Positions 40,302 through 54,587 of a DNA stretch of 64,000 nucleotides are shown here, piece after piece. Source of the stretch: Rhodocollybia butyracea (Eukaryota > Basidiomycota > Agaricomycetes > Agaricales > Omphalotaceae); NCBI GenBank assembly GCA_015501585.1, contig JADNRY010000226.1, forward strand, positions 1 through 64,000, written 5' to 3'. The translations under genes were made by a program, and so were the position numbers. The notes beneath the pieces were generated by a model. That model was given only the letters and a program-made list of their open reading frames with translations. It had not been told where the DNA came from and made no database searches. How positions within the stretch are numbered: position 1 is the first letter of the stretch; each line of letters starts with the position of its first letter.

Positions 40302-40590
40302 CTGATTAGATACTGTATAATTACGACTGTATGCTCCCGGGGGTCAAGGCGTTACACGTTGTTTTTTGACAAACAACATGCTCAGGGCCCGCCGTTATGC
40401 GTTACGCATAACGCTAGATGCACAAATGAATAGGGGGCCAAAGGCCCGCCGCCAAGATTTGTGACATTTCGAGCAATAGCATACTCGAACCCTCCCGTTA
40501 CACGTTACAGATTGCAAAATCCCCATGCTCGGGGGTCCTGTTACGCGTTATGGGAGCATCCGGTCGTAAATATATAGTAGATTAATGCTG
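40302..40590. mobile_element. Fold-back/MITE-like element with imperfect long TIRs
   Basis: ATGCTCCC (40331-40338) and GGGAGCAT (40552-40559) form an inverted pair. Outward of them TTACGAC and GTCGTAA pair as well, and the match continues imperfectly to CAGCTA/TAGCTG, giving arms of about 45 bp. The inside is rich in CGTTACACGTT and CGTTATGCGTTACGC motifs. No target duplication was found, so the ends are approximate. Confidence 0.6.
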
Positions 40591-41690
40591 TAGCTGGAAT
40601 CTGTTAATACTTATAGTAACATTAAAAAAAGAAAGATTAGCATAGGTAGCACTTGTAAAAGAGAGGGCGGATAGAGGCTTGGATAGAGAAGCATGTATGA
40701 TGTAACCAATAGGCCGGCTGCGGCTTATACACAGCTAGCCCAATCTATTAAACTGGGTAGAACCCAGAGCCGCTGGCGCCCAGCGTTACTGTTTTGATGC
40801 TAAGGGTCAAAATGAGCAACAGAACTGGGGATCAAATCAGTCCCAGGAAGCAAACGGATCGTCTCTGGCCCCACTCACTGTTTCAACTTGGGTTCAATCA
40901 AAGATGCACCCCGGTATAGCTTTCCGAATCTTTCAAATATTTTTCCGGTTATTCCCGATTTTTTATTCCGAGTATCCCGATCGTTCAGAACCAAATAAAC
41001 ATTATATTGCACACTATAGCTACGCTATCTGTACTTGCCTAGTACTACATACGTTGCATCACGCTAGATAAAATATCCATAATACAGAAACAATGACCTG
41101 AAGAAAATAGACTTACCGTGCTGAAGTAAAAACTAGCGAAAAAACCTACCTCTCTTGAATACAACGGTGAGTATGAGATTTGAGCGCTGTTGAACAAAAG
41201 GGAAGCGTTGAGAGATTGAGATTGTTGAGTATCTTGAACAGCTTTGAGGGTCTTGAATGGCTTGTGAATATTGCTAAGTTGTTATGAGAAGTTGCTCTTG
41301 AATATCTTGCCAACATTCGAAGCTTTCGTGGCTTGACAATGTTGAGTGAGAGGCTTGCAGTATTGATATCTGAGATCTTGAGTGTTTGCTGGGTTAAAAT
41401 CTTGCTCAGCTTGAAGATGAACGTTGAAGTTGAAGAAAGAAAGCAACGAACCAACACGTGCATGCACTGCTTCGTCATCTCGTGGTTGTTTTTGCTTCCG
41501 TCTTACGCGCTGGCGATCGCGACTGGACCTTTAACGGTTTCCGGTTAAGTCTTCAAGAACAATAAGCTGATTTCTAGTGATTAAAAAAGGACTAAGCAGA
41601 ATATACATTGCAACAATATCTCCAGCTTGTAAGTGGTGTCACTTGAGTAAAAGTTGTACTAAAGAGAAACACATAACAGTCTACGATCTA
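40591..41690. other. No gene recognised; left margin of the TET/JBP block
   Basis: From about 41150 to 41420 there are many TCTTGAA/CTTGAG-like words. Frames on the minus strand (41146-41478) look compositional rather than coding. I looked for an end inverted to the region near 51500-51760 and found none. Confidence 0.4.
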
Positions 41691-41915
41691 CGCGTAATCT
41701 AAGAGACTGTCCATGCGCTGATCAGCTATACATGCGGTTGTAGGGCTTGCGCCGTTGGTAGGTGAGCTGGTCTGAGCACCCACAGCGCTTGTAGACATGG
41801 GCATCTCCTGCAGAGCCGAGCTGTCAAATCCAGCTTCATCGAGACGCCGGCATTCGTTGATGAATCTATTCCAATGGTCAGACTCCTGTCAATAACTCAA
41901 GATGAATCAAATCGC

Positions 41916-43235
41916 TCACTCTTTCCACTTCATGTCTGTCATCTTCTTTCCTAACGTCTCTAGCTTCTCTAAAAACCACTTGTCCAGGACACTCCAGAAG
42001 TCTTGACCTTTGGGCACACGGCCCGCCGTTGCAGGCTTTATCTTGCGCTTCTTCATCCCAGCAGCAGGCTGACTGAACTCATCATCGTTGTCCGGTTCAC
42101 CTTCTTCATCAACCCATACAGCATTCGGGTTCTGGTGGATGAAGTGCCGCTGCAATGAAAATCATTAATCGAAACACAAAGTGCTCAGTTTACAGGAACA
42201 TACCAAAAGTATATTCCTATTGACGATAAGTTCACGGTTGTAAGCAGGACCTCCGGCACGCAGGTAAATACGGTTCATGTGGCTGGTGAATTTGACAACA
42301 CTGAGGCCTTTACCCATCCCATCGTGAAGCTACAAGTAAACAATTAGCCCTGTGGACAGGCCCAATGATCAGGTATCTCTCACATGCTGGCGCAGTCCAT
42401 TTTGTACTGAGGAGCTTTGCTTTATGGTGACTCGTTCTAAGACCTTCTCATACGCAGGAACCCCAAAGATGTTGTCGAAGCCATACTGAGTGGCGTTTTT
42501 CTTTATATCGTCCTAAAAATCGGTGAGCATAGGTTATATGACTTCACGGTGGGTCACATACAAAGGTGTCTGCGCTCAAGTCTTGATAGCAGGTGCGCAA
42601 AGGATCATAGATCAAATCCTGAACGATGGCACGGACAGTTTTCTGGAAACCACTTCTTGAGCATCGAGGTGAACGTTATGGGGAATAACTCACATTTTGG
42701 TTAGGAGTCAACGCGAATGTCTGCTCTAGCCTGATTTGCAAGTCTCGGAGCATCCTCCGAAGGGTCTCAGTGTTGTTTTGGTCTTCGACGATTTTTGGGT
42801 TGTTGTACATCTCAAAATGAATTGACATTTCATAGAGCTTTACAAGCAGGTCAGGCTTGGTGATACCCCCGTCGACTGCAGCAAACTATGCGGGGTCATG
42901 AGCAAGTAAAAACGCAAGGACACTAAGCAACGTACTTTGGCCATAACGTGTAGTTTTTTCCTTTGATTCTCTGTCAACTTGTGTTCTAGGGCAAGGTTGT
43001 CGATGAAGAGAGGCTTGACAATAGGAGTTGTGTCAAAGGAAGTTGGTGATCCAGAGACAGCCGGCGGTGACTCAGTGCTATGGTAGGGAAGAATAGGAGC
43101 CGACGATGGTGTATACGGGCTAGAACCTCCTGTCTGACCTGACGGCGACGGGGTATAAGGCATATAGGAGCCTGACGACGGTGCGTAGGGTGTGTGTGGT
43201 GGGAAGCGTTGGACAGGAAAGTCATCGTCGGCCAT
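41916..43235 (-). CDS. 353-aa protein of the TET/JBP-linked block, unknown function
   Basis: Six exons: 43235-42936, 42885-42694, 42642-42562, 42512-42384, 42329-42204 and 42149-41916. They sum to 1062 nt in one frame with GT-AG junctions. The N-terminus is a Pro/Ser/Tyr-rich linker (TPYAPSSGSYMPYTP). It is followed by a helical part (LEHKLTENQRKKLHVMAK) and a middle part with TVRAIVQDLIYDP. The end is basic (GMKKRKIKPATAGRVPKG, a possible nuclear localisation signal) and Trp-containing (DFWSVLDKWFLEKLE). After the stop, a further open piece (DHWNRFINECRRLDEAGFDS, to about 41688) follows a CAG acceptor, but the frame does not join cleanly, so the last exon or a frame error is unresolved. The gene is divergent from the coiled-coil gene at 43484. 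I suspect a DNA-binding or accessory factor, from context only. Confidence 0.65.
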
Positions 43236-43483
43236 GCTGAAAGCTGGTGAATTTTGTTGGGTAGGTTCTGACGGGCTGTCCCCATATTTTTGAGCCTTTT
43301 ATATGGATTTGGGAGTAACGTGCCAGCGTCGCGAAAAACGCGCTGTTGAACGTTAAACAAAGAAGATTCTCGTGCTCTGAACGTGACCACCAGACGGGTA
43401 TAAAACCTGAAGGTCTCGCATTTTGAAAGCCCCATCCACTCCACGGTTTAGCTGTTAACGCTTCAGTTTTTTTTTGCTCTTCA
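43236..43483. promoter_or_regulatory. Divergent promoter between the two small genes
   Basis: A 248-bp gap separates the starts of the minus-strand gene (43235) and the plus-strand gene (43484). A pyrimidine-rich tract (CAGTTTTTTTTTGCTCTTC) lies just before the plus-strand ATG, as is common near fungal transcription starts. No clear TATA. Confidence 0.45.
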
Positions 43484-44311
43484 ATGTCGAATAGTTATCA
43501 AACTGTATGTGCCTTGCCCATTAAAGATGCTAGCAGCATTCTAATCTTTTCATCTGACAGCCCTGCTCGATAACGCCTCTCTGTACCATCGGTGGCAACA
43601 AAAATACCTTCACAATCTACGAGGATGTTGTTCAGACCCCAGCCCCTAACAAACGGAAGCGTACCAATGTTGAGGGCCAGCTACCAACACCTCCGTCGGC
43701 CTCGACTTTGACCTCAATTAGCAGCTCTGTTAGCTCGCCCTTATGGTATGTTAGTTCTTCTCCATGTTACCAATATGGGTATTGACCACCCTTAAAGGGA
43801 GTCTGAGGAAACGAAGTTGAAAGAGACACAGCATCGGTTGGCACAAACACAGTCTGAGCTCAAGGTGATGAAATATGCGTACAAGTTGCTCATGTGCAGA
43901 GGCAGTCCTGCTCAGGCAAAGGAGCTCAAAGACAAGGTACGCGAGTTGGAGACCCGGCTTGCAGCAAAAGAGGAGGATATACAGAACTTAGAGGGGAACA
44001 ATGAAGCTTTGCAGGCTTCAATCGACTTCAGCTACCAGGATAACACCTGGCGCAACGAGGAGCTGCGCCATGTGCAGAAGTTGCTTGCAGAGACCCGTGA
44101 AGAGTTGGCCAGCGCTAGGGCGGCCCTTTCGATGTCCTCACGGCTTGCCTTTCTTCTCATCTCGCCTGCATTTCAACACATCGGAAACCCAGGGCATAAT
44201 CAGGAAGGAAGGAAGGAAGGAAGGAAGTTTCAGGAAAGATTGGAAGAGGCGATTAGTGGTTTGGAAGCTATGAGTAGGGAGCAGGAGGAGGCAGCTGTCA
44301 CCAGTGAATAA
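43484..44311 (+). CDS. 239-aa coiled-coil protein of the TET/JBP-linked block
   Basis: Three exons, 43484-43504, 43561-43745 and 43798-44311, sum to 720 nt. The N-terminus reads MSNSYQTPCSITPLCTIGGN. A basic NKRKRTN cluster (possible nuclear signal) and a Ser/Thr/Pro linker follow. From about residue 73 the protein is strongly helical with heptad-like spacing (KDKVRELETRLAAKEED, then LRHVQKLLAETREEL), predicting a coiled coil. A GGAA tetranucleotide run at 44203-44224 encodes QEGRKEGRK and may be unstable. Divergent from the gene at 41916-43235 and convergent with the dioxygenase gene, 185 bp away. The pairing suggests a partner protein that dimerises; function unknown. Confidence 0.7.
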
Positions 44312-44496
44312 CTCTGAAAATACTCTTTATACTGTGAACGTATATCTCTCTATCGAATGTCCAGATCTTTCTATGATTTTCTACATTGAACATGTAAGCG
44401 CTGTGTACAATTAAAAATATCGATGCTTTTACAAAGGAATGTAAGAACATAAGGTTTATTGGGATCGAAACTGAAGCTACGTAATCCTGCTATGCT

Positions 44497-46309
44497 CTAG
44501 TTACCCTTCCAACGACCTGCTTGAATATCCGCCCATTTAGAGAACATATGAAGACCGCTTTCCCATTTCCCTCGTCGTTCAGCGTTGCGTTTTGAGCGTT
44601 GAGATGCAGTAGCCCGGAGGTCGAAGTCAACATCGCTTTGGAACCCATTTTCAACCCAACGGAACAACCCAGCTGACGAGTATTGGATGAATGAATAATG
44701 TTCTTCCCCAGGTGCAATAGGGACGTTGGAGTGCACAAGCAGGGCGGAAGGAATGAGAATGGTGGACCCCGGAGGGAAACGTATAAATAAGCCAAGATCC
44801 CACAGGATGAGGTGTCCCCCAAGCGTGTGGTCAAAGTTGCCGAGTGCAGTGATAGAGCACCAACCAAAACAAAGATTGGCTGCGTCTACATGGGGGAAAG
44901 TGACGGAGAAGGGGCCAAAGTTGATTGTGCATGCAGCCCATGCGTTGTTTTTGAAGAGACGGTGAAGGTTTGGATTCCAGTCGAAGAGTTTGTCCAATGT
45001 AGCCTTGCAGTAGGCATAGCACTGGTACGCATACGCCATAAAAAGGCCTAGGGCACGCGTCAGAGCCAGCAAAAAACTAAGTACAAGTAAGAAACTCACA
45101 GTTGGCATAGCCTGATATCCGTGCGAAACAATTGAGACTTAGGAGAGCGAACATTATGTTGAAGTCTGCTGGACTGGTTTGCCTCAGGTTACCCGGTTCC
45201 TAAAATGCGAAGTTAGCTGGGGGTATGCTCAGAGAGTTGAAGCCTCACTTTCGAACCTCCGCCGAAACTGACTCCGAAAGCAACAGCAGGACAGTCCGCA
45301 CGACGGTGGTTGGCTTGCTTTTCACTGAATGTAAGGTCCGCTCGAGCCTGACGAATAGCTTTGGTAGCCGTATCGTTTACTGCCTCAAGCCACTTAGTAT
45401 CTTGCGGATGGCTACCGACAACGCCAGAAACAATGCCGTCAGAGTCGAGAAGCGCATACGTTTGGCTAAGGTTGAAGGTGAGAAAGAGAAACAAACAAAA
45501 GATCGGAAAAAACACGCACCCAGGCTCCGCGACAAACTCTACCAGCCCCTCTGCCTCCAGCTCTGCAACCGAGGAATGCACACGTGAAAACTGCTGCTTC
45601 TTGCCTGTATATCCACCCGAACCAATCGCCGCATCCTCTGACAGTGAAAAAACCTCAGAGGGGAGGGAAGCTGATGCTGCAAGACATTGCTGAGCATGTT
45701 CAGAGATCTCTCGGTGCTGCCCTTCCTGGTTCTTTGCTGCACAATCCAGTTTTCGCTTTTGGCGATTCTTGGCATCCTTCAAGGCGCTTTTTTCCTTCTT
45801 GGTGCGATGGGGGCCTACACTGGCCTGTGGAACGGATGAGGGAGCTGGTTGGAATGAGGACGGAGGTTCGGGTATAAGGTCGAGGACAAATTGATACGGT
45901 GACGCATCACCCAAGCTGCCATGGCTAGGGACCGGTTTGTTATCAACCTCGGGGTTGTCCTGAAGGTTGTCGGATCGTTCGGCGTCCTCCTGTGCACGTA
46001 GCTGAGCCACAACCCGGTCTTTGAGGTGAAACGGCCGTCGCGTTCGTACAGATTCCATGGCCTGAGCTTTAATGCCATTGACACCCCATGGAGAATATGA
46101 GCGTCCGCTTTGCGTTACTGGAAAAACGCAGGTGAGAAGAAGTTTTTGAAAAAGCACAAAAGAAGCGGAACGGGCTCAGAAACGTCGACAATCGAAGGCT
46201 GCCTGCAGTTTGGCTCCTAAGTTGGACCCTCCCTGCTAGCTCCACCAACGACTTTGACAAGGGAGCAAGGAGAATACAGCAGGGCAAACAAAACAGAAAG
46301 CTTACCCAT
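44497..46309 (-). CDS. TET/JBP-like 2OG-Fe(II) dioxygenase
   Basis: Five exons: 46309-46306, 46117-45520, 45465-45249, 45199-45100 and 45047-44497. They total 1470 nt in frame, or 489 aa; a 4-nt first exon (ATGG) is followed by a 188-nt intron. Residues 1 to about 150 are basic and low-complexity (KKEKSALKDAKNRQKRK). The C-terminal third is the double-stranded beta-helix: FPHVDAANLCFGW gives the HxD pair (His359, Asp361), and GSTILIPSALLVHSNV gives the distal His412. This strand order (GGHLILWDLG, FPPGSTILIPSALLVHSN, HYSFIQY, GLFRWVENGF) is that of the fungal TET/JBP family, which oxidises 5-methylcytosine in DNA with Fe(II), 2-oxoglutarate and O2 in the nucleus. At His423 I expect Arg, the 2OG ligand of relatives (ERYSF type). 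The codon is CAT, one transition from CGT. Activity may be lost. The start has a good context (CACAGCCATGG). Confidence 0.8.
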
Positions 46310-46488
46310 GGCTGTGATCACCGATAAGGGATACCGTTGAAAGGTTGCGGTGGTTGATTCAGAAGAGAGCAACATTATAAAGGGTCGTGCTCATGATCAC
46401 CTGATGTGACAACGCGTATTCCTTATGACTTAACCGCAATGGGTGCATTTTGAACACGAAAGGTTGCACTGTCCCCGGCTTCTTCTTC
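46310..46488. other. Short spacer between the dioxygenase and the transposase-like gene
   Basis: A gap of 179 bp holds the dioxygenase promoter and the 3' end of the gene upstream of it. Such tight packing of same-strand genes is unusual in this otherwise gene-poor window and suits a mobile unit. Confidence 0.5.
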
Positions 46489-49400
46489 CTAAGGAGCTCC
46501 TCGAGTTGGTGTTTGCGGATGAGATCCTTGACCTGTGAGCTGGTCTATTGAAAACGGCCCTTGGTCGAAGTAATGAGGTCCTGTCGGCGTGTGTTCCACA
46601 AAATGAGCCGATGGGCTCACTGTGTAAGGATGCGAATGATCTTGTGCAGCACCATTGTGCAGGGAGTGATGGCTGTGTGCGTTGGAAACGAGTGAGCTTC
46701 TGGCTGAGATGTGTGGTGCTGAGTGAAACGAAATGGGCGATGGAAATGTATGGCCGTAATAAAGGGAATGACCGGGAAAGTCCATAGTTGGATTTTCCCT
46801 GTCTTGCGGAGCACTAAGCGACGGTGCAAGGAGCTGAACAGGATCACCCGAAGTGAACATAGGGGCTCCCGAACCAGCAATCGGCTGCGGAGAATGGATG
46901 TGGGATTGGGTTTCCTGAGGCTGAGCGAAATTGTATGGAGATGGATGGGACATGTTTGAGTAGGGGCTGTGGCGAGGTAAGGGTTGTGTGCGATAGGAAG
47001 AGGGCGGTCGTCCGGAGGATGTGCCTTGATGGAAAAGTGGGGCTGGTGTGTGCGAGCTGGAAAGAAGAGTTGATTTGGAACGAGCTGTGGGTCGGGTTGT
47101 CAAGTATACAGACGGGTTGGGAGCGGCTTGATGTGAGGGTACCAGAGGGGATTGCGCTCGGGAACCTGATGAAATCGGCAAAGAAGCTGGCTTTGAGACT
47201 TTGGCTTTGGGGTTTTCCGCATCCCATTCACGAACTGCACTGGCTTGGAGGATATGATCGGAAACCAAAGGCTGGGCTGCAATTCGGAAGCGCTGAACAT
47301 ATTTGGCATCTCGCATTTGCGCTGTGTTCAGTACAAGATCCTGGACATTTCCCCGATGGTTAATACGGCCTTTGAGATGAACTGTTTGTTCTTGCTCTTG
47401 TCGGACAGCTAGATCATGTTCAATGGTGCATGGGTTACGGGAGCAATCGTGCTGGGTATTGACTGTACAAAGTAGCTTCTACTCCTCTGGTAAGTGGCGG
47501 GATAAAAAAAACAAGCAGATAAAAATGTACTTCAGGTTCAACTAAATGGAAGCTGTTCGAGGAGAGTAGACGAGGCATCCCATGTACAGATACTTGTGGT
47601 CCAACCTTGTGACCTTCCAATAGTACAGCATCTGCGGTCTTGTGTGCTGTATCAGGGCGATAGCGCCATAAGACCTCCTTCACCTGAGCAATCTCAACTC
47701 CATCAACTGCGTTCCCAGATTCAATGTTCTGGCAAGCAACATAGCTTCCCGGCATACACTTGTCAAGATTCTCCAGCACCAGATCTTTAGCGCGATGGAA
47801 TGTTGCATTTGATTTCTCGTCAGCCTCAAAAATAGGAGACATGGGGACGTGTCTACCAGAGAAAGTGTTTTGCCATTTTTGTGCAGTCGTACTGCTGTCT
47901 AAAGTACAAGTACCTGTTGGGAATAAGTATGTGAGAAACGAGGGTATGGATACAAATTTACCAGGAGAGGCAGTAAAAGTAGGAGGAACGAGACCCAAAT
48001 AATGCCCGATAGTACTCAATGAGTGGTCAACCAACTCGACAGTGCTGGGACCAGCCTTCATGAGATGGTCAGGATCAAAAACCCCAAAGCGATAATACCG
48101 TTGATTCACGGTCACTCTATCCGTTTGAGGAAGACAAGTATCAAGGAACTTCTGGTCACCCTCAGGATCAACAGGGATCTTGTCTCGGTCTAAGAAGAGT
48201 GCGCCACTAAGCATGTGGCGAAGACGGTTTTGTTTCGCAAATGCGATGGCGATATCGCGAGACGGAGCTTGTCGGTTGGAGTGAACACTCTGCGCGCGGA
48301 TAACAGCGTTGAAGGACTCAAAACCTTCAGTAGCAAAAAGCATGGCAGGACCGAAACGGCGGATGTGTTCTGGAAGGTGAACGAGGATATGAAATTTAGG
48401 TTTGTTGAACCAGCGAATAGTCCAATGTCCTACGCAGAGGAGAAAGTGCTGTATTTCGTTCTCTAACGTTGTCTAGTGAAGTAGAGTCAGAATATATATT
48501 AGATTTGCATGCAGTAGGGACGTTACCAGGTATGACTTCAGCTCTAAAATTTCAGGTTGCCATATCAAAGGTATGAGCTTTGACAGTGCAACCCACGTCG
48601 CATAGCAATCTGCAGAGACAAAGTCCTTCAAGATAAAAGGAGCTACCTGAGCCACCTTTCGGAAATCAGAGCCTGTGAGAGAACCGTAATGGTTGACAAG
48701 CGTGGCCCCAGCAAGCTTGGAATCCAGGCCTAACCCGTCAACGTCAAGAGAGGACAGGCGAATGATCAACTCCTTTTGCTTCTCTGGGTTTTTCTTGATT
48801 TGATTCTCAATGGCATCGCGCCAGAGATACTTTACAAATCCAAGTAAAATCACATGAAGTATCTCCACCGGCGTGTCGGAATGAGGATCCAAGCCTGTAT
48901 GTAGAGTATCAGTAAATGAGCATGAACATAGGAGTAACGAGTCACCTCGAAGTCTCCATACAGGGCTCATGGTGTCAGGAGGCAGATCAGAAATGATCTT
49001 TGCGGTTATATTAGAGACTCCGCGTCATCGTTTGTATGAGTCAAGTAGTCGTTCAATGAAGAAGTTCTGGAAGGTGTCTTTGATGCCGGTTACGGTTCGC
49101 ATCTCCTTGATTTTTGAGCCCAATCCCGGACTCTGAGCTGTTAGAAATTGTGTCTTGAGGATCTGGATGCTTTCGGCCTTGACTCTCGGGGTTCCGGGCT
49201 GAAAGTCAATCAGATGGATATAAGCCATGCGAAACAATTCTGCCACCTTGACAAAAGCCTTGACACGTTCAGTCATTGCTGCCAACCCCTCTTTAAACTT
49301 CCGACGCCCTTTTCCAGTCTTCTTATCTGGCGTGGAGTTGCCCGAACCTATAGAGTTGATATCGGAATCTTCATCAGTGTTATCAGGCTCAGCTTGTGTG

Positions 49401-51483
49401 TGAAGTGAACGGCCAGCTGAATCTTCCGCTTTTGAGTCTTTCCCTTTCACTCCACATACTCGACAAAAGAATTTCCCCCACAAACCAATGTGACATGCAA
49501 ACTCGCTTTGCATGGGGTTATCACCGAGAAGCGCAAGAACGCATGGGATTAACAAGACCTTTGACTCGGTAACACAATCCCAAGCCCATATCCCATGTTC
49601 CTGTGCATCACTTCAAGAGAATATGTGAACAAGCTGGAAAAGAAGAAGTAAACAACCCAAACCTCATCTGATCTGAAATGCCATCCAACATTTCAAGAGG
49701 GGGCGCGATATTTGATGTAGACAAAAAATGAATATTATACTCCTTTGACGATTCAGCACGTGGAAGACCAGCGGCAGTGAATAAGAAGCTGTTGTGCTTG
49801 TTCCACTTTTTGGAAGTGTTGCCTGAAGTGTCGTCGCAGTAAAGCCAGATTGGAAAGGAGAGACAGGGAGCACCGTTAGCGCGTTCACGCCAGGGGTTCC
49901 CCAAGACTGGATTGGTCAGCTTCCAGTTTTCAACGGTATGCGGTGTGGTTGATATATCGATAGAATCTATTTCATTGTGAGTGCTATCAGCGTGTTTGAG
50001 AGAAAATAATAATACCTTCAATGTTTGAGACATTCTCAAAGCCAGGATAAGAAGCAGTGTCCGAAAGAAGCTGAGGAAAGTTTTTTAGGAGCTCTTCCTC
50101 TCCAACGGTGATCTCTCCACCTCCTTGTACAACTCTCCATGATTTTCGAACTCCTTCCCTGACGACTTCTTCCATAGCCCAGCATCGCACGTAATGGCGC
50201 GGACCATGCATGAACCAGCGGTGAGGCATACATATCTTTCCACTGCGAAGCATAGCCGGCTCAAAAATATAGTAGTCTACACTACCAACGCGCAGCATTG
50301 GCCCCATTTCATCATCCGGTATCTCATGTAGCCAGTGTGCGAATTGACGTGCCTCTGAGAGGTTTTGATCTACCGCTTCAGGATAGAATGAAAGATGCGG
50401 GCGTACTCGAGGGTTTGCCATTTCCTGCAAGTATGTGAGCGGTTAAAATTTTACAAGATTAGAAATCCAGACCTGCGAGATAATATCGGCTAAGCTATTG
50501 GTGTAGTATGTATGTCCAAGAGCTCCTTTGTACTTGATTGTCTGAATGCCATAGAGTGTCTGTAATTTTTTATCAACCTCGTTCATCTTTTTAACTGAAG
50601 GAGTATCATCAACCCCGGATACTTTGAGCATCCATAGAAAGAGGTCCAGCTGTCGTGTAGAAAATACCGAGCGAGGAAGATGCATGAGGATGTCAATGGT
50701 ACACTCCTTAGATTAGAATAAAAATCAGCCCGGAAGATAGTATACAGGAAGTTAATGCTTTACCGTTCTGTTGTTCCAAGGAAACCATTCACGCGACCTG
50801 GAATCCGTAGTGCGAGGGCGTTTGTGATTGAGTCCGTTTGGATTGAATGCATCGTCTCCTTTGGGGGTTTGAAGTTAGCAGGGTGAATGCATGGTTATCC
50901 TTGTACCTACCTCTACTCTCATTGACCTTGCTTAAATCCTCAGTTTCTGAATCAGATCCATCTGAAGCCTCATTGGGAGGCTCCTCATCTGAGTCAATGT
51001 TATCAGGCCCATACTCATACACTCCAAGCATGTAATCGCTGAGAGCTTGTATTTCCTCAGCTTGACGAGACCCCGAAAATTGAGGATCCATTTCGTCCAG
51101 CTGATCCCAGTTATATGACTGTAAAGGCTGATAGGCTGGCATAGAAATTTCAGGGAAAGAGTCCAGTGCAGGTAAGTTTTGCAGTGCAGCTGCGGGATCG
51201 TTACTGAGATAGGCCAGGAGACGTGTGGATACAAGGTCTGAAGCAGAATCGATGGGAACTGCTGGAGCAGGATGATTGAGACGCTGATGTGTACTGAGCT
51301 TATCGATATGCTTGGACGAAATAGCATGACGCCTGGCATTGCTGACTTTCTGATCACTGACGCGACAGACCTTGCACTCTACGCGCCATTCTCGCGATTT
51401 ATTGAAGGTTACGCGCCAGACAGCTAGATGAACTTATATTTAGCATCAATGCCGACATCGTCAAGGAAATCAAAGGCTTGCAT
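46489..51483 (-). pseudogene. Transposase-like gene with C2H2-like N-terminus, degraded
   Basis: Ten exons: 51483-50911, 50858-50764, 50706-50473, 50424-50016, 49966-49663, 49610-48946, 48894-48527, 48472-47962, 47913-47531 and 47478-46489. The N-terminus has a Cys pair and later His (WRVECKVCRVSDQKV, then ARRHAISSKH), like one C2H2 finger. Then come WFPWNNRTECTIDILMHL, PIWLYCDDTSGN, HGIWAWDCVTES, a CRVCGVKG motif, DTPVEILHVILLGFVKYLW and GFESFNAVIRAQSVHSNRQA. These segments belong to a multicopy Agaricomycete family often found beside TET/JBP genes. I take it for a DNA-transposase class, but cannot name the superfamily or point to the catalytic triad. Lesions are an in-frame TGA at 49025-49027 and a frame break near 51425 that separates the likely start (MQAFDFLDDVGIDAKYKFI) from the finger. 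The Pro/Ser/His-rich C-terminus is open to the stop at 46489. Confidence 0.65.
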
Positions 51484-51808
51484 TCATCCTCGAAACCTTC
51501 AGGCTTTATTGAGACACGCCGTGACATCACAACTTAATTTGGAAGGAGGGCGGCTGAGTGAGCGCAGGGGATTTCGTCCCAGGTGCAGCCAAGTGGTTGC
51601 TGCAGTCTGAAACCAATAAAATTTGCATTCTAGTACTATTTACGCTGTTTGAAACCTGGTTTGAAATTTTTGAAAAAAAGGCCCAAAATTAAACTGATGC
51701 GCGGCACTGCGGCCGGCGGATAAACCTAGCGCATCTGAGCGTCTGGCCGTGTAGTCAAAGAAGAATGTCGGTGACTCCGAATCGACTTCGAAGCACCAAA
51801 AACGCTAA

Positions 51809-51898
51809 TGACCCCGACCCGGATTGAACGGATGACCTTGAGGAAACGCTGCTACACGGATACTGGAATCTCACGCTCTACCGCTGAGCTACGGGGTC
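51809..51898 (-). tRNA. tRNA-Trp (CCA) with intron
   Basis: The acceptor stem GACCCCG/CGGGGTC pairs at all seven positions, the D-stem is GCTC/GAGC, the anticodon loop starts TTCCAG with anticodon CCA (51864-51866), and the T-arm is ATCCG-TTCAATC-CGGGT. A is the discriminator. An intron of about 18 nt follows position 37, as in many fungal tRNA-Trp genes. The anticodon stem TGAGA/CCTCA has one A-C mismatch next to the loop. A and B boxes (TAGCTCAGCGG and GTTCAATCC) are intact. Confidence 0.93.
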
Positions 51899-51899
51899 A

Positions 51900-53097
51900 C
51901 TTAGGCCATTATGAGAATAGCTATTGGTAACAGCAGGAGTTGGATATCGTTGTGCCACTTCGATGCCTTGGTTCGTTTTCAGTCAGCGGAACAGAAAAAA
52001 AACGAAACAAATTCCCACCGAGCGCGAGTCCAAACGCCGACCATCCAACCCGATGCTATTCAATGCTGCCTTCATTTATTGTGTGCTCCGGAGCGATACT
52101 CCTTCTTTTCTCGCGTCCTCTGATACCCTCTTGCATCTTTTATCTGCTCCAGCCGTAAGCTGATATTGTTATCCATAACCAAAATCGCCTCTAGTAATCC
52201 TACATTTCGCTTCAAAGGCGTCATGAGATCTCATACTATACTCCGAGTCGAGTCGAGGAGCTTCAGGCCAGGCCTAGTCGTGTGCGAGTCGAGACTCAAT
52301 ATCAATATTCAATGTCCCAAAGGCATGCTATTATGCGCTCAGTAGTTGCCCCAGCCTGCTGCCGCGTGGGCTTCTAAAGCTCTCGCTAGCCTCACTTACC
52401 TGGAATTCCATTAACTTTTGCTAATTGCAAGTAGAATTACTGCAGGGCATTGAAACTTCAAGCTTCAAGGGTTACCAAAGGCTCATCATGCATCAACGAA
52501 CCATTCGCGATAAGAGATGCAGTTCAAAAGTCAAGATGCCGTTTTTGCAGTACGACTTGTTCAAGCAGACGGAGGAGTGGCCTGTGGTTCCTTCATCTAT
52601 CATTCGGTTGCTCAAGCGCTCAACGTTCAAGCTTCAAGGCTCTGTTTTACAAATCTACTCCTTCCATACCAAGCGTAATGTATGCTATCGTCCTTCGGCG
52701 TGGACCGCTTGAGGTTTCGAGCATCTCACGTCAAACACGTACCGAAAGGATTTCTTTTTCCCCTTTTTCTCGTCCTTGCGTTTGTCCAACAAAGATGGCT
52801 TCTGTTGAGTGAACACTGGGTAAGGACGGAAAAGCAGTTCATGATTTAACAGTTCCATATCGAGCCACTTGATGGATGAATAACGACAACATGGTGATGA
52901 GGCAAGTTCAAGCTAGAGCTTTGGGAACCGCACTGCGACAAGAAAAAAATCAAGATAGAACAAGTTACAATGTTACTAATGATACATGCTACACAAGTAC
53001 ACAAGACAAGGTGATGATACAATGATTAGGAGTATGATATAGAGTTAAGGGGAGTTATTGTTCCGGACATGTTGAAATCGTTAGCGAAACTTGTCAA
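51900..53097. other. No gene recognised
   Basis: Only frames below about 120 codons, overlapping in several phases, without recognisable motifs. It includes the 3' flank of the BTG/TOB-like gene. Confidence 0.45.
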
Positions 53098-54141
53098 CTA
53101 AGCACGGACACGGCGCCAGTTGGAAGAATCAGGTCCAAGCATAACAGCTCCGGCGCGTTTCCTCGAGGTCCGTCTGAGGGATTCGCGAGTAGGAGCAGGT
53201 GTCGTAGTGGGGACCTGTCTAACAGCACCAGCACTGCTCGAGGGCTCAACCTTTCCAAGCATGACCCCACCAGTCATCACACCCGTCTGACCACCCTGGT
53301 AAGTGTAGCGACAGATGGAATCCTTGCTCTTGTCAACGGCGACAGGTGCGAGACGACGCTGAGGGCGCGAAAGTAGGTGATGGGAAGGGATCGAGTCGGT
53401 ATTGATAACATCAGAGTCACCCTTGGCGGACGCCATTCGGCAAGGAGGGACGTAGACAGAAGTCTTTTTGGGCACTGTAGGAAGATCACAGGACGCAGAG
53501 ATGGGTGACGAAGAAGTGGATGATACCGAAGTCATGGATTCGTCTGATGAAGCTTCTGAAAAACCAGTCGACGAGGTAGTGGACTCGGTGTCCGAATCAC
53601 TCTCGGAAATAGTGTCGTCGTCATCGGTTTGCGTAGGGAAGGAAATAAGTGTAGGAAGGGCAATAGGCAAGGACTCAGGCGCTGCGGAAGCGCGCTCGCG
53701 AACAGCTAGCATGTCTCGTAATTTCGAGAGCATAGGTTTGGCCACTCCAGTTTTGGTCTTTGAGATCGATGGAACCTGGACAGGATCTTCAGACCACAAA
53801 GTGATAGGCTCTCCGAACTCTCCAATACGAAGTGTCAAGCTCCCTTCCATGACGAAGATATACATGACTTGATTTCCCAGTGCACGAATCCATTCAGGCC
53901 ACGCAATTCCGGCCTGTAAACAGGCCGCGTATATGGGAGTTGGAGGAAGACAAGCCGGAGAGAGAAGAAGGGTAAATGGAGAAACAGGCTGGTGTATACA
54001 CACAAGGTTGGCATGTAAGAATGATTGGAGCTGGGCGATAGCTTGTGCAGGGTAAACTACCGCCAACGGACGCGTCAAGAGCATTACAAGCTGGGAAAGC
54101 GTGGCAGATTCGGAGGAGTTGAACATGGGCGAAATGGGCAT
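53098..54141 (-). CDS. BTG/TOB (anti-proliferative) domain protein
   Basis: Single-exon 347-aa frame starting at ATG 54141. Residues 14 to about 125 show the BTG/TOB layout: a helical start (LSQLVMLLTRPLAVVYPAQA), then TLLLSPACLPPTPIYAACLQ, corresponding to the Box A side. AGIAWPEWIRALGNQVMY and SLTLRIGEFGEPITLW follow, corresponding to the Box B side, where animal BTG proteins have the LTLWVDPxEVSYRIGE order. BTG/TOB proteins bind the Caf1 deadenylase of the CCR4-NOT complex and dampen mRNA stability and proliferation. The rest is acidic and Ser-rich (DDDDTISESDSDTESTTSS), then basic, with RYTYQGGQTGVMTGGVMLG. It is divergent from the F-box gene with a 446-bp gap. The family call rests on pattern recall and should be tested with a profile search. 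Confidence 0.6.
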   Translation of the reverse strand: MPISPMFNSSESATLSQLVMLLTRPLAVVYPAQAIAQLQSFLHANLVCIHQPVSPFTLLLSPACLPPTPIYAACLQAGIAWPEWIRALGNQVMYIFVMEGSLTLRIGEFGEPITLWSEDPVQVPSISKTKTGVAKPMLSKLRDMLAVRERASAAPESLPIALPTLISFPTQTDDDDTISESDSDTESTTSSTGFSEASSDESMTSVSSTSSSPISASCDLPTVPKKTSVYVPPCRMASAKGDSDVINTDSIPSHHLLSRPQRRLAPVAVDKSKDSICRYTYQGGQTGVMTGGVMLGKVEPSSSAGAVRQVPTTTPAPTRESLRRTSRKRAGAVMLGPDSSNWRRVRA

Positions 54142-54587
54142 CGTCTAGTAAGCGTAGAAAAGTTGGGAACGTAGATAATATCGCTCTGCGATGTAAAAGG
54201 TCGTAATTGGAGAGTCTACGAGACAAAAACATCATTAAAACCGCCGAACAGTGGAGACATAACACACATACCGAAGAGATGTAAAAGAGACTTGCAGTTA
54301 TGGATACACAAGAGAGATGGGCTGGAGCAAAGCAAACGAAATTGGACTATACACCGAAGAGATGTAGACTGAGGTTTCCATGTCCGTACCCCTTGCTTTT
54401 ATACGCATTAGAAGAACAATGCTGGCGAGAACAATGAGTGTCAACGCACAATGGGCGCTTCTTGTGATCAAGATGACCACGTGAGAGTGGGCGCTAAAAT
54501 ACTTTGCGCCTGTCTTTTTTTGTTGGTAAGCAATTCACCTTGATTTGTACGTCTTTTCGCAACCAACTTGACCAACTTGAAGAACAG
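54142..54587. promoter_or_regulatory. Divergent promoter of the BTG-like and F-box genes
   Basis: Non-coding gap between two start codons. A copy of part of it (CTTTTATACGCATTAG.AGAACAATGCTG) recurs at about 56350-56385, upstream of the second F-box gene, so the promoter region was duplicated together with the gene. Confidence 0.5.

What the first reader, a model, noticed from the sequence alone, without database searches (positions are those of the whole stretch)
41688..51483. Composite mobile-element candidate: TET/JBP dioxygenase with transposase-like gene and two accessory genes
Four multi-exon genes are packed with gaps of 179-248 bp in an otherwise gene-poor window. The dioxygenase shows the HxD...H ligands and strand order of fungal TET/JBP. 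The long gene shows family segments I know as multicopy in Agaricomycetes (EILHVILLGFVKYLW, SVHSNRQAPSRDIA). It is established that Agaricomycete TET/JBP genes are expanded and linked to DNA transposons, notably the KDZ class. This transposase-like protein has no KDZ signature that I recognise, and the two small genes (a TENQRKKLHVMAK protein and a KRKR coiled-coil protein) may be undescribed accessory factors. A DNA-modification enzyme travelling with a transposase could guard the element against methylation silencing.
Basis: partly seen in the sequence, partly recalled or inferred. Interest (0 to 1): 0.82.

Follow-up and report, generated by a model that had tools for sequence, protein, structure and literature searches.

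The report
Mushroom jumping gene carrying TET enzyme
This is a real 11-kb jumping gene of a mushroom that carries, besides a RAG1-like cutting enzyme and two unknown proteins, an enzyme of the TET family that may remove the methylation marks used to silence such elements; the general kind was already known, this version appears to be a new variant.

The parts
40730..51751 (.). the whole transposon (11,022 bp); ends CACAGCTAGCC / CACGGCCAGAC read inwards, 8 of 11 bases alike
   Evidence: sharp borders shared with copies on C1206, C561, C535, C473
40728..40729 (.). left TA of the target duplication
   Evidence: single TA at three inspected empty sites of sister insertions
51752..51753 (.). right TA of the target duplication
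41688..43235 (-). gene A (TENQRKKL protein, 411 aa in the public model), unknown accessory protein with KKRK patch
   Evidence: no Pfam match
43484..44311 (+). gene B (KRKR patch and coiled coil, 239 aa), unknown accessory protein
44497..46058 (-). gene C, TET/JBP-type dioxygenase (468 aa in my model)
44497..46246 (-). stretch shared with integrase-type elements: TET gene plus about 190 bp upstream, about 72-74% DNA identity over most of it
44698..44700 (-). codon of the TET where the near-invariant Arg (39 of 40 relatives) is His in this copy
46489..51483 (-). gene D, RAG1-like transposase with a C2H2/BED-like N-terminal motif (start uncertain)
49025..49027 (-). in-frame TGA in gene D of this copy; not present in the C1206 copy

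Best explanation
A cut-and-paste DNA transposon of the CACTA/EnSpm-Plavaka-Transib-RAG1 (CMCT) clade that inserts at TA and carries three further genes. D recognises the ends and excises and inserts the element (inferred from fold, motifs and insertion structure). The TET enzyme most likely oxidises 5-methylcytosine that the host puts on the element, easing silencing of the element or of its relatives (inferred). A and B, both with basic nuclear-signal-like patches, are most likely DNA-binding or assembly partners of the transposase (inferred, weakest step). Shown: borders, TA duplication, empty sites, recurrence, folds of close relatives of C and D, purifying selection on the TET catalytic exon, CpG-type decay. 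The window copy itself looks dead.
For: Borders and TA at 17 of 18 ends of nine elements. Empty sites with one TA: C2/C1065, C535/C171, C1206/C323. Same order of four genes in window, C1206, C2, C592, C772; A, TET, D in the same order on C827 and C17. D motifs, RAG1 fold. TET fold: CcTET E 2.2e-10, NgTET1, CMD1, TET2; 17 of 40 relatives match Pfam Tet_JBP, best 3.6e-7. Catalytic exon dN/dS 0.05 and 0.07 against integrase-element TETs. 278 of 377 substitutions between element copies are CpG to TpG/CpA, against 15 of 66 in flanks.
Against: TET-less or TET-deleted copies are among the most alike: C561-C535 0.13%, C1005-C2 0.32%, so TET is not needed in cis. TET-bearing pairs carry CpG scars as much as TET-less ones (36/50, 51/67, 77/104 against 6/11). 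Methylation, TET activity, transposition and the roles of A and B were not measured. The models are of relatives (P0001, P0122), not of the window proteins. dS in the dN/dS test is near saturation (1.06 and 1.98).
Confidence: 0.62

Rival explanations
1. TET is a passenger that is handed between transposons and is kept because it acts genome-wide (for the host or for all elements alike), not for the element that carries it.
For: At least 116 TET-like matches in this genome, beside four kinds of transposase gene (D, integrase, Plavaka, KDZ); TET-less sister copies; no lesser CpG scarring of TET-bearing copies. Kojima suggests non-targeted action for the AG type.
Against: TET keeps its place between B and D in two divergent families; strong purifying selection on the catalytic exon, which would fit either reading.
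Confidence: 0.25
2. The TET product marks elements with oxidised cytosine that represses them or tunes their copy number (self-regulation) instead of freeing them.
For: A study of Laccaria and Coprinopsis discusses oxidised mC on transposons as an added suppression and autoregulation mechanism (PMC8889193, passages).
Against: No data on this genome.
Confidence: 0.1
3. Four neighbouring host genes, not one mobile unit.
For: None after testing; the left flank of the window copy is odd (a repeat to 40724).
Against: Shared sharp borders, TA duplication and three empty sites.
Confidence: 0.02
4. A TET-bearing Plavaka or KDZ transposon, as already described.
For: Plavaka shares the CMCT motifs with D; TET+ Plavaka and KDZ exist in Agaricomycetes.
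Against: No Plavaka (PF18759) or KDZ (PF18758) match at any of the D elements among 138 and 144 matches (capped searches); ends are CACA..CGTG, not CATCA..TGATG or TGT..ACA; duplication 2 bp, not 7-8 bp.
Confidence: 0.04

Closest known systems
TET+ EnSpm transposons of Agaricales and rusts (Kojima 2025, PMC12730594)
   Same: CMCT-type transposase, CAC..GTG ends, TET gene inside the element
   Different: reported duplication is 3 bp, here 2-bp TA; reported Agaricales EnSpm TETs are of the HxE (PE) type, here HxD. Sequences of those families could not be compared (supplement not open)
ESTA transposons (Kojima 2025)
   Same: TA duplications, RAG1-like transposase, TET gene
   Different: reported from rusts only; kinship of the transposases not testable here
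TET+ PlavakaB (Kojima 2025; Iyer 2014 recalled)
   Same: shared D, D, C2C, H3H, E motifs; TET; 2-3 bp duplication
   Different: no Pfam Plavaka match, other ends, profile of D does not reach Plavaka ORFs of this genome while it reaches a tnp2 ORF
RAG1 / Transib
   Different: 10-14% identity; other cargo and, for D, a long stretch (about 129-270) before the catalytic core
CcTET of Coprinopsis cinerea
   Same: fold (Foldseek E 2.2e-10) and HxD..H ligands
   Different: about 14% identity; a profile of the family found no TET in the PDB by sequence

Membership tests
[quoted passage not shown]
   CDDTSGN, GDNP, FCRxC, KFHxxxHxxxH, LFATExFES conserved
CMCT clade (EnSpm, Plavaka, ESTA, Transib, RAG1) | CA..TG ends and 2-5 bp duplication | tested here: met
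   CACA..CGTG and TA
CMCT clade (EnSpm, Plavaka, ESTA, Transib, RAG1) | RAG1/Transib-like fold | tested here: met
EnSpm/CACTA | 3-bp duplication as in fungal EnSpm of Kojima 2025 | tested here: not met
   2-bp TA; note that a CACTA relative with 2-bp repeats is known (SmTRC1, PMC1636069 passages)
EnSpm/CACTA | tnp2 (Transposase_21) domain | tested here: inconclusive
   4 of 39 relatives match, best E 0.0015; D profile hits a tnp2 ORF of this genome at 1.3e-5
ESTA | TA duplication | tested here: met
ESTA | transposase in the ESTA branch of the tree | not testable with these tools
   ESTA sequences are in a supplement that could not be opened
Plavaka | Plavaka transposase domain PF18759 | tested here: not met
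   no match for D or relatives; 138 matches elsewhere in the genome, none in the D elements
Plavaka | ends CATCA..TGATG or TGT..ACA | tested here: not met
KDZ | KDZ domain PF18758 and 7-8 bp duplication | tested here: not met
hAT | hAT transposase domain and 5-8 bp duplication | tested here: not met
   no hAT family in the Pfam scans; 2-bp TA
TET/JBP dioxygenase | double-stranded beta-helix fold nearest to TET enzymes, with HxD...H | tested here: met
   Pfam Tet_JBP in 17 of 40 relatives, but not in the window protein itself
TET/JBP dioxygenase | oxidation of 5mC | not testable with these tools
   needs an assay
PE-type TET (Kojima 2025) | HxE in place of HxD | tested here: not met
   HVD in the window; 38 of 40 relatives have D, 2 have N
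AG-type TET (Kojima 2025) | residues matching CcTET Gly331 and Asp337 | tested here: inconclusive
   no residue-level CcTET alignment obtained; counted without gaps from the HxD, the window has Asn and Cys there
BAH domain in D | BAH fold | tested here: inconclusive

The most novel reading that the evidence does not exclude
A TA-targeting, RAG1-like transposase family of mushrooms that holds a BAH-like chromatin-reader domain in front of its catalytic core and, in one sub-lineage, travels with a TET-type eraser and two dedicated partner proteins: a mobile reader-plus-eraser kit against silencing, whose TET module is handed between transposon classes with unrelated recombinases (RAG1-like and integrase-type) inside one genome.
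Probability: 0.2. Interest if true: 0.75.

Novelty: new variant of a known kind. Interest (0 to 1): 0.52.

Why it matters
It is a complete TET-bearing element with exact ends, empty sites, TET-plus and TET-minus sister copies and a CpG-decay record in one genome, so the untested claim that transposon TETs defeat methylation can be tested by comparing sister copies. It also shows a TET gene shared between a RAG1-like and an integrase-type element, and a RAG1-like transposase family spread over mushrooms that the Pfam library does not cover above cut-off.

Tried and rejected
KDZ, Plavaka and hAT assignments were tested and rejected (membership test). Sequence profiles of TET and D against the PDB found nothing meaningful; fold comparison did. 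A residue-level CcTET alignment was sought without success. The BAH-like stretch of D got no support from sequence and stays tentative. Remains of TET between B and D of C561: none convincing. A liking for tRNA genes (a tRNA lies about 55 bp right of the right TA) was looked for in 17 fetched loci with ARAGORN: two predictions, neither near an end; but ARAGORN also missed the tRNA that Rfam finds in the window, so this control is weak. The number of D copies in the genome is unknown, because that search did not complete. Literature searches for this element: (listings only); no listed title or abstract start describes it, but matching is literal ('TET/JBP' cannot be searched as such) and most subscription papers are absent.

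Full report
What is there. The four genes of the finding are present and splice at GT-AG introns of 48-57 bp, except one of 34 bp in my model of A that the public model replaces. A (minus 41688-43235) and B (plus 43484-44311) diverge; TET (minus 44497-46058) and the transposase-like D (minus 46489-51483) follow. Public models P0241 (A) and P0121 (D) agree except at the last intron of A and the ends of D. D has an in-frame TGA at 49025-49027; P0121 leaves that stretch out.

Host.

Borders. Copies on C561, C535 and C473 share sharp ends with each other, and the window shares its left end with C1206 and its right end with the C561 group. The element is 40730-51751, ends CACA.../...CGTG with imperfect inverted repeats, between two TA. 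Of nine elements with both ends seen (window, C1206, C561, C535, C473, C2, C592, C772, C1005), 17 of 18 ends abut TA; the left end of C592 does not. Joined flanks of six insertions were searched in the genome. Three uninterrupted sites were inspected and show a single TA: C2 at C1065 (98.6%), C535 at C171 (93.5%), C1206 at C323 (99.5%). C561 (71-80% at four places) and C473 (90% on C589, 85% on C605) also gave matches running across the junction, in repeats, which I did not inspect; the window junction gave none. The window shares its right flank with C1206 (no substitution in 2020 bases), but its left flank, to about 40724, is a repeat also found on C113, C147, C9 and C331, so its own empty site is shown only through C1206. 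Why the left flank differs is unexplained.

Recurrence. Among the fetched loci, A-, B+, C-, D- occur in this order in the window, C1206, C2, C592 and C772; C717 has A, B and C with no D match; C561 and C535 have A, B, D and no TET; C1005 has A and D, B and TET being deleted relative to C2; C473 has A and a piece of D; C520 has A, B, D and a weak TET match (36%) in the other orientation. On C827 and C17, A, TET and D lie in the same order, B not detected. Five further A matches (C827:517615, C682, C1165, C1042, C539) were not followed up. A and D share a contig length, hence probably a contig, in Lentinula novae-zelandiae (10,256: P0246, P0134) and Dendrothele bispora (365,067: P0244, P0224). 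A was found in 7 proteins, D in 668 (both searches reach only relatives sharing short words), so the four-gene form looks like a sub-lineage of a wide transposase family.

TET. The model of P0001, a TET from the integrase-type element on C545, 83% identical to the window's (pLDDT 92), matches CcTET, NgTET1, CMD1 and TET2. The HxD..H ligands are kept; the near-invariant Arg of an RxS motif (39 of 40; its role in 2-oxoglutarate binding is recalled) is His in the window copy, while C1206 has an Arg-to-His change at another place. The type is not PE (HxE); AG could not be decided.

Exchange of the TET gene. The nearest TETs (C545, C716, C1183; about 86% in the catalytic exon) lie elsewhere: C545 and C716 show no A, B or D nearby, C1183 is not among the A or B matches. 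There the neighbour is an integrase gene (PF24764, E 4.1e-22, for C545; the same protein by eye on C1183; C716 is 99.7% to C545). C628 also has such a TET, surroundings not fetched. DNA similarity to the window is confined to 44497-46246. In a tree of 24 TET rows the window and C1206 group with these three (98/96), apart from the TETs of the second family of D elements. Transfer direction is not settled. dN/dS of the catalytic exon is 0.05 and 0.07 across this split, with dS near saturation.

Methylation scars. Between element copies 278 of 377 substitutions are CpG to TpG or CpA (window-C1206 36/50, C561-C535 6/11, C2-C592 51/67, C2-C772 77/104, C2-C1005 18/23, C2-C717 90/122); in flank comparisons 15 of 66 (8/21, 6/40, 1/5; the window-C1206 flank has no substitution) (Fisher p 5e-15, not strictly valid since four pairs share C2). 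The C545-C716 pair, a different element (3 of 6), is not in the 377. The simplest cause is deamination of methylated CpG; methylation itself was not seen, and TET-bearing pairs are no less scarred than the TET-less pair.

Mechanism. Shown: a TA-inserting DNA transposon with four genes, seen filled and empty. Inferred: D cuts and joins like its RAG1/Transib relatives; TET oxidises host methylation; A and B assist. TET is not needed in cis, since a TET-less pair and a TET-deleted copy are among the most alike copies (0.13% and 0.32%); they may have used proteins of relatives.

Known context. Kojima 2025 (PMC12730594; outline and abstract, parts 1-4 of 7, sections 26 and 34) describes TET genes in 11 transposon lineages, in Agaricomycotina in Kyakuja, Zisupton, EnSpm, Plavaka and Helitron2, and proposes escape from silencing. 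Iyer 2014 is not held and is only recalled. So the kind is known. New, as far as could be compared, are the pairing of an HxD TET with a TA-inserting, CAC..GTG, RAG1-like element, genes A and B, and the sharing of the TET with an integrase-type element. The Repbase consensus sequences behind that paper could not be opened and may hold a relative.

Noticed in passing
L025 (C545), L026 (C716), L054 (C1183): Another element type with an integrase gene (PF24764) carries a TET about 86% identical in the catalytic exon to the window's, plus a further unknown gene downstream.
   Followed up: partly
L053 (C533:10900-12200), with Plavaka at C533:4417-5496: TET genes lie about 3-8 kb from Plavaka matches on 13 contigs. 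The one read (C533) is of the HxD type, whereas Kojima reports HxE for Plavaka TETs.
   Followed up: partly
L052 (C762:22800-24400): TET genes also lie near KDZ matches (C762, C972, C938, C583, C442, C74, C837, C905); the one read is HxD.
   Followed up: partly
window 40480-40724: The left flank of the window element is a repeat found at 96-99% on C113, C147, C9 and C331, ending 5 bp before the element end.
   Followed up: no
window 46195-46246: A 52-bp block upstream of the TET gene is 88% conserved in the integrase-type elements, more than the gene itself: possible promoter or binding site.
   Followed up: no
window 51809-51898 minus: A tRNA gene (Rfam, 48.3 bits) lies about 55 bp right of the element; ARAGORN does not report it.
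   Followed up: partly
window 52976-54486: A stretch 84% alike to an inverted copy on the far side of the C1206 element (C1206:2517-4081).
   Followed up: no
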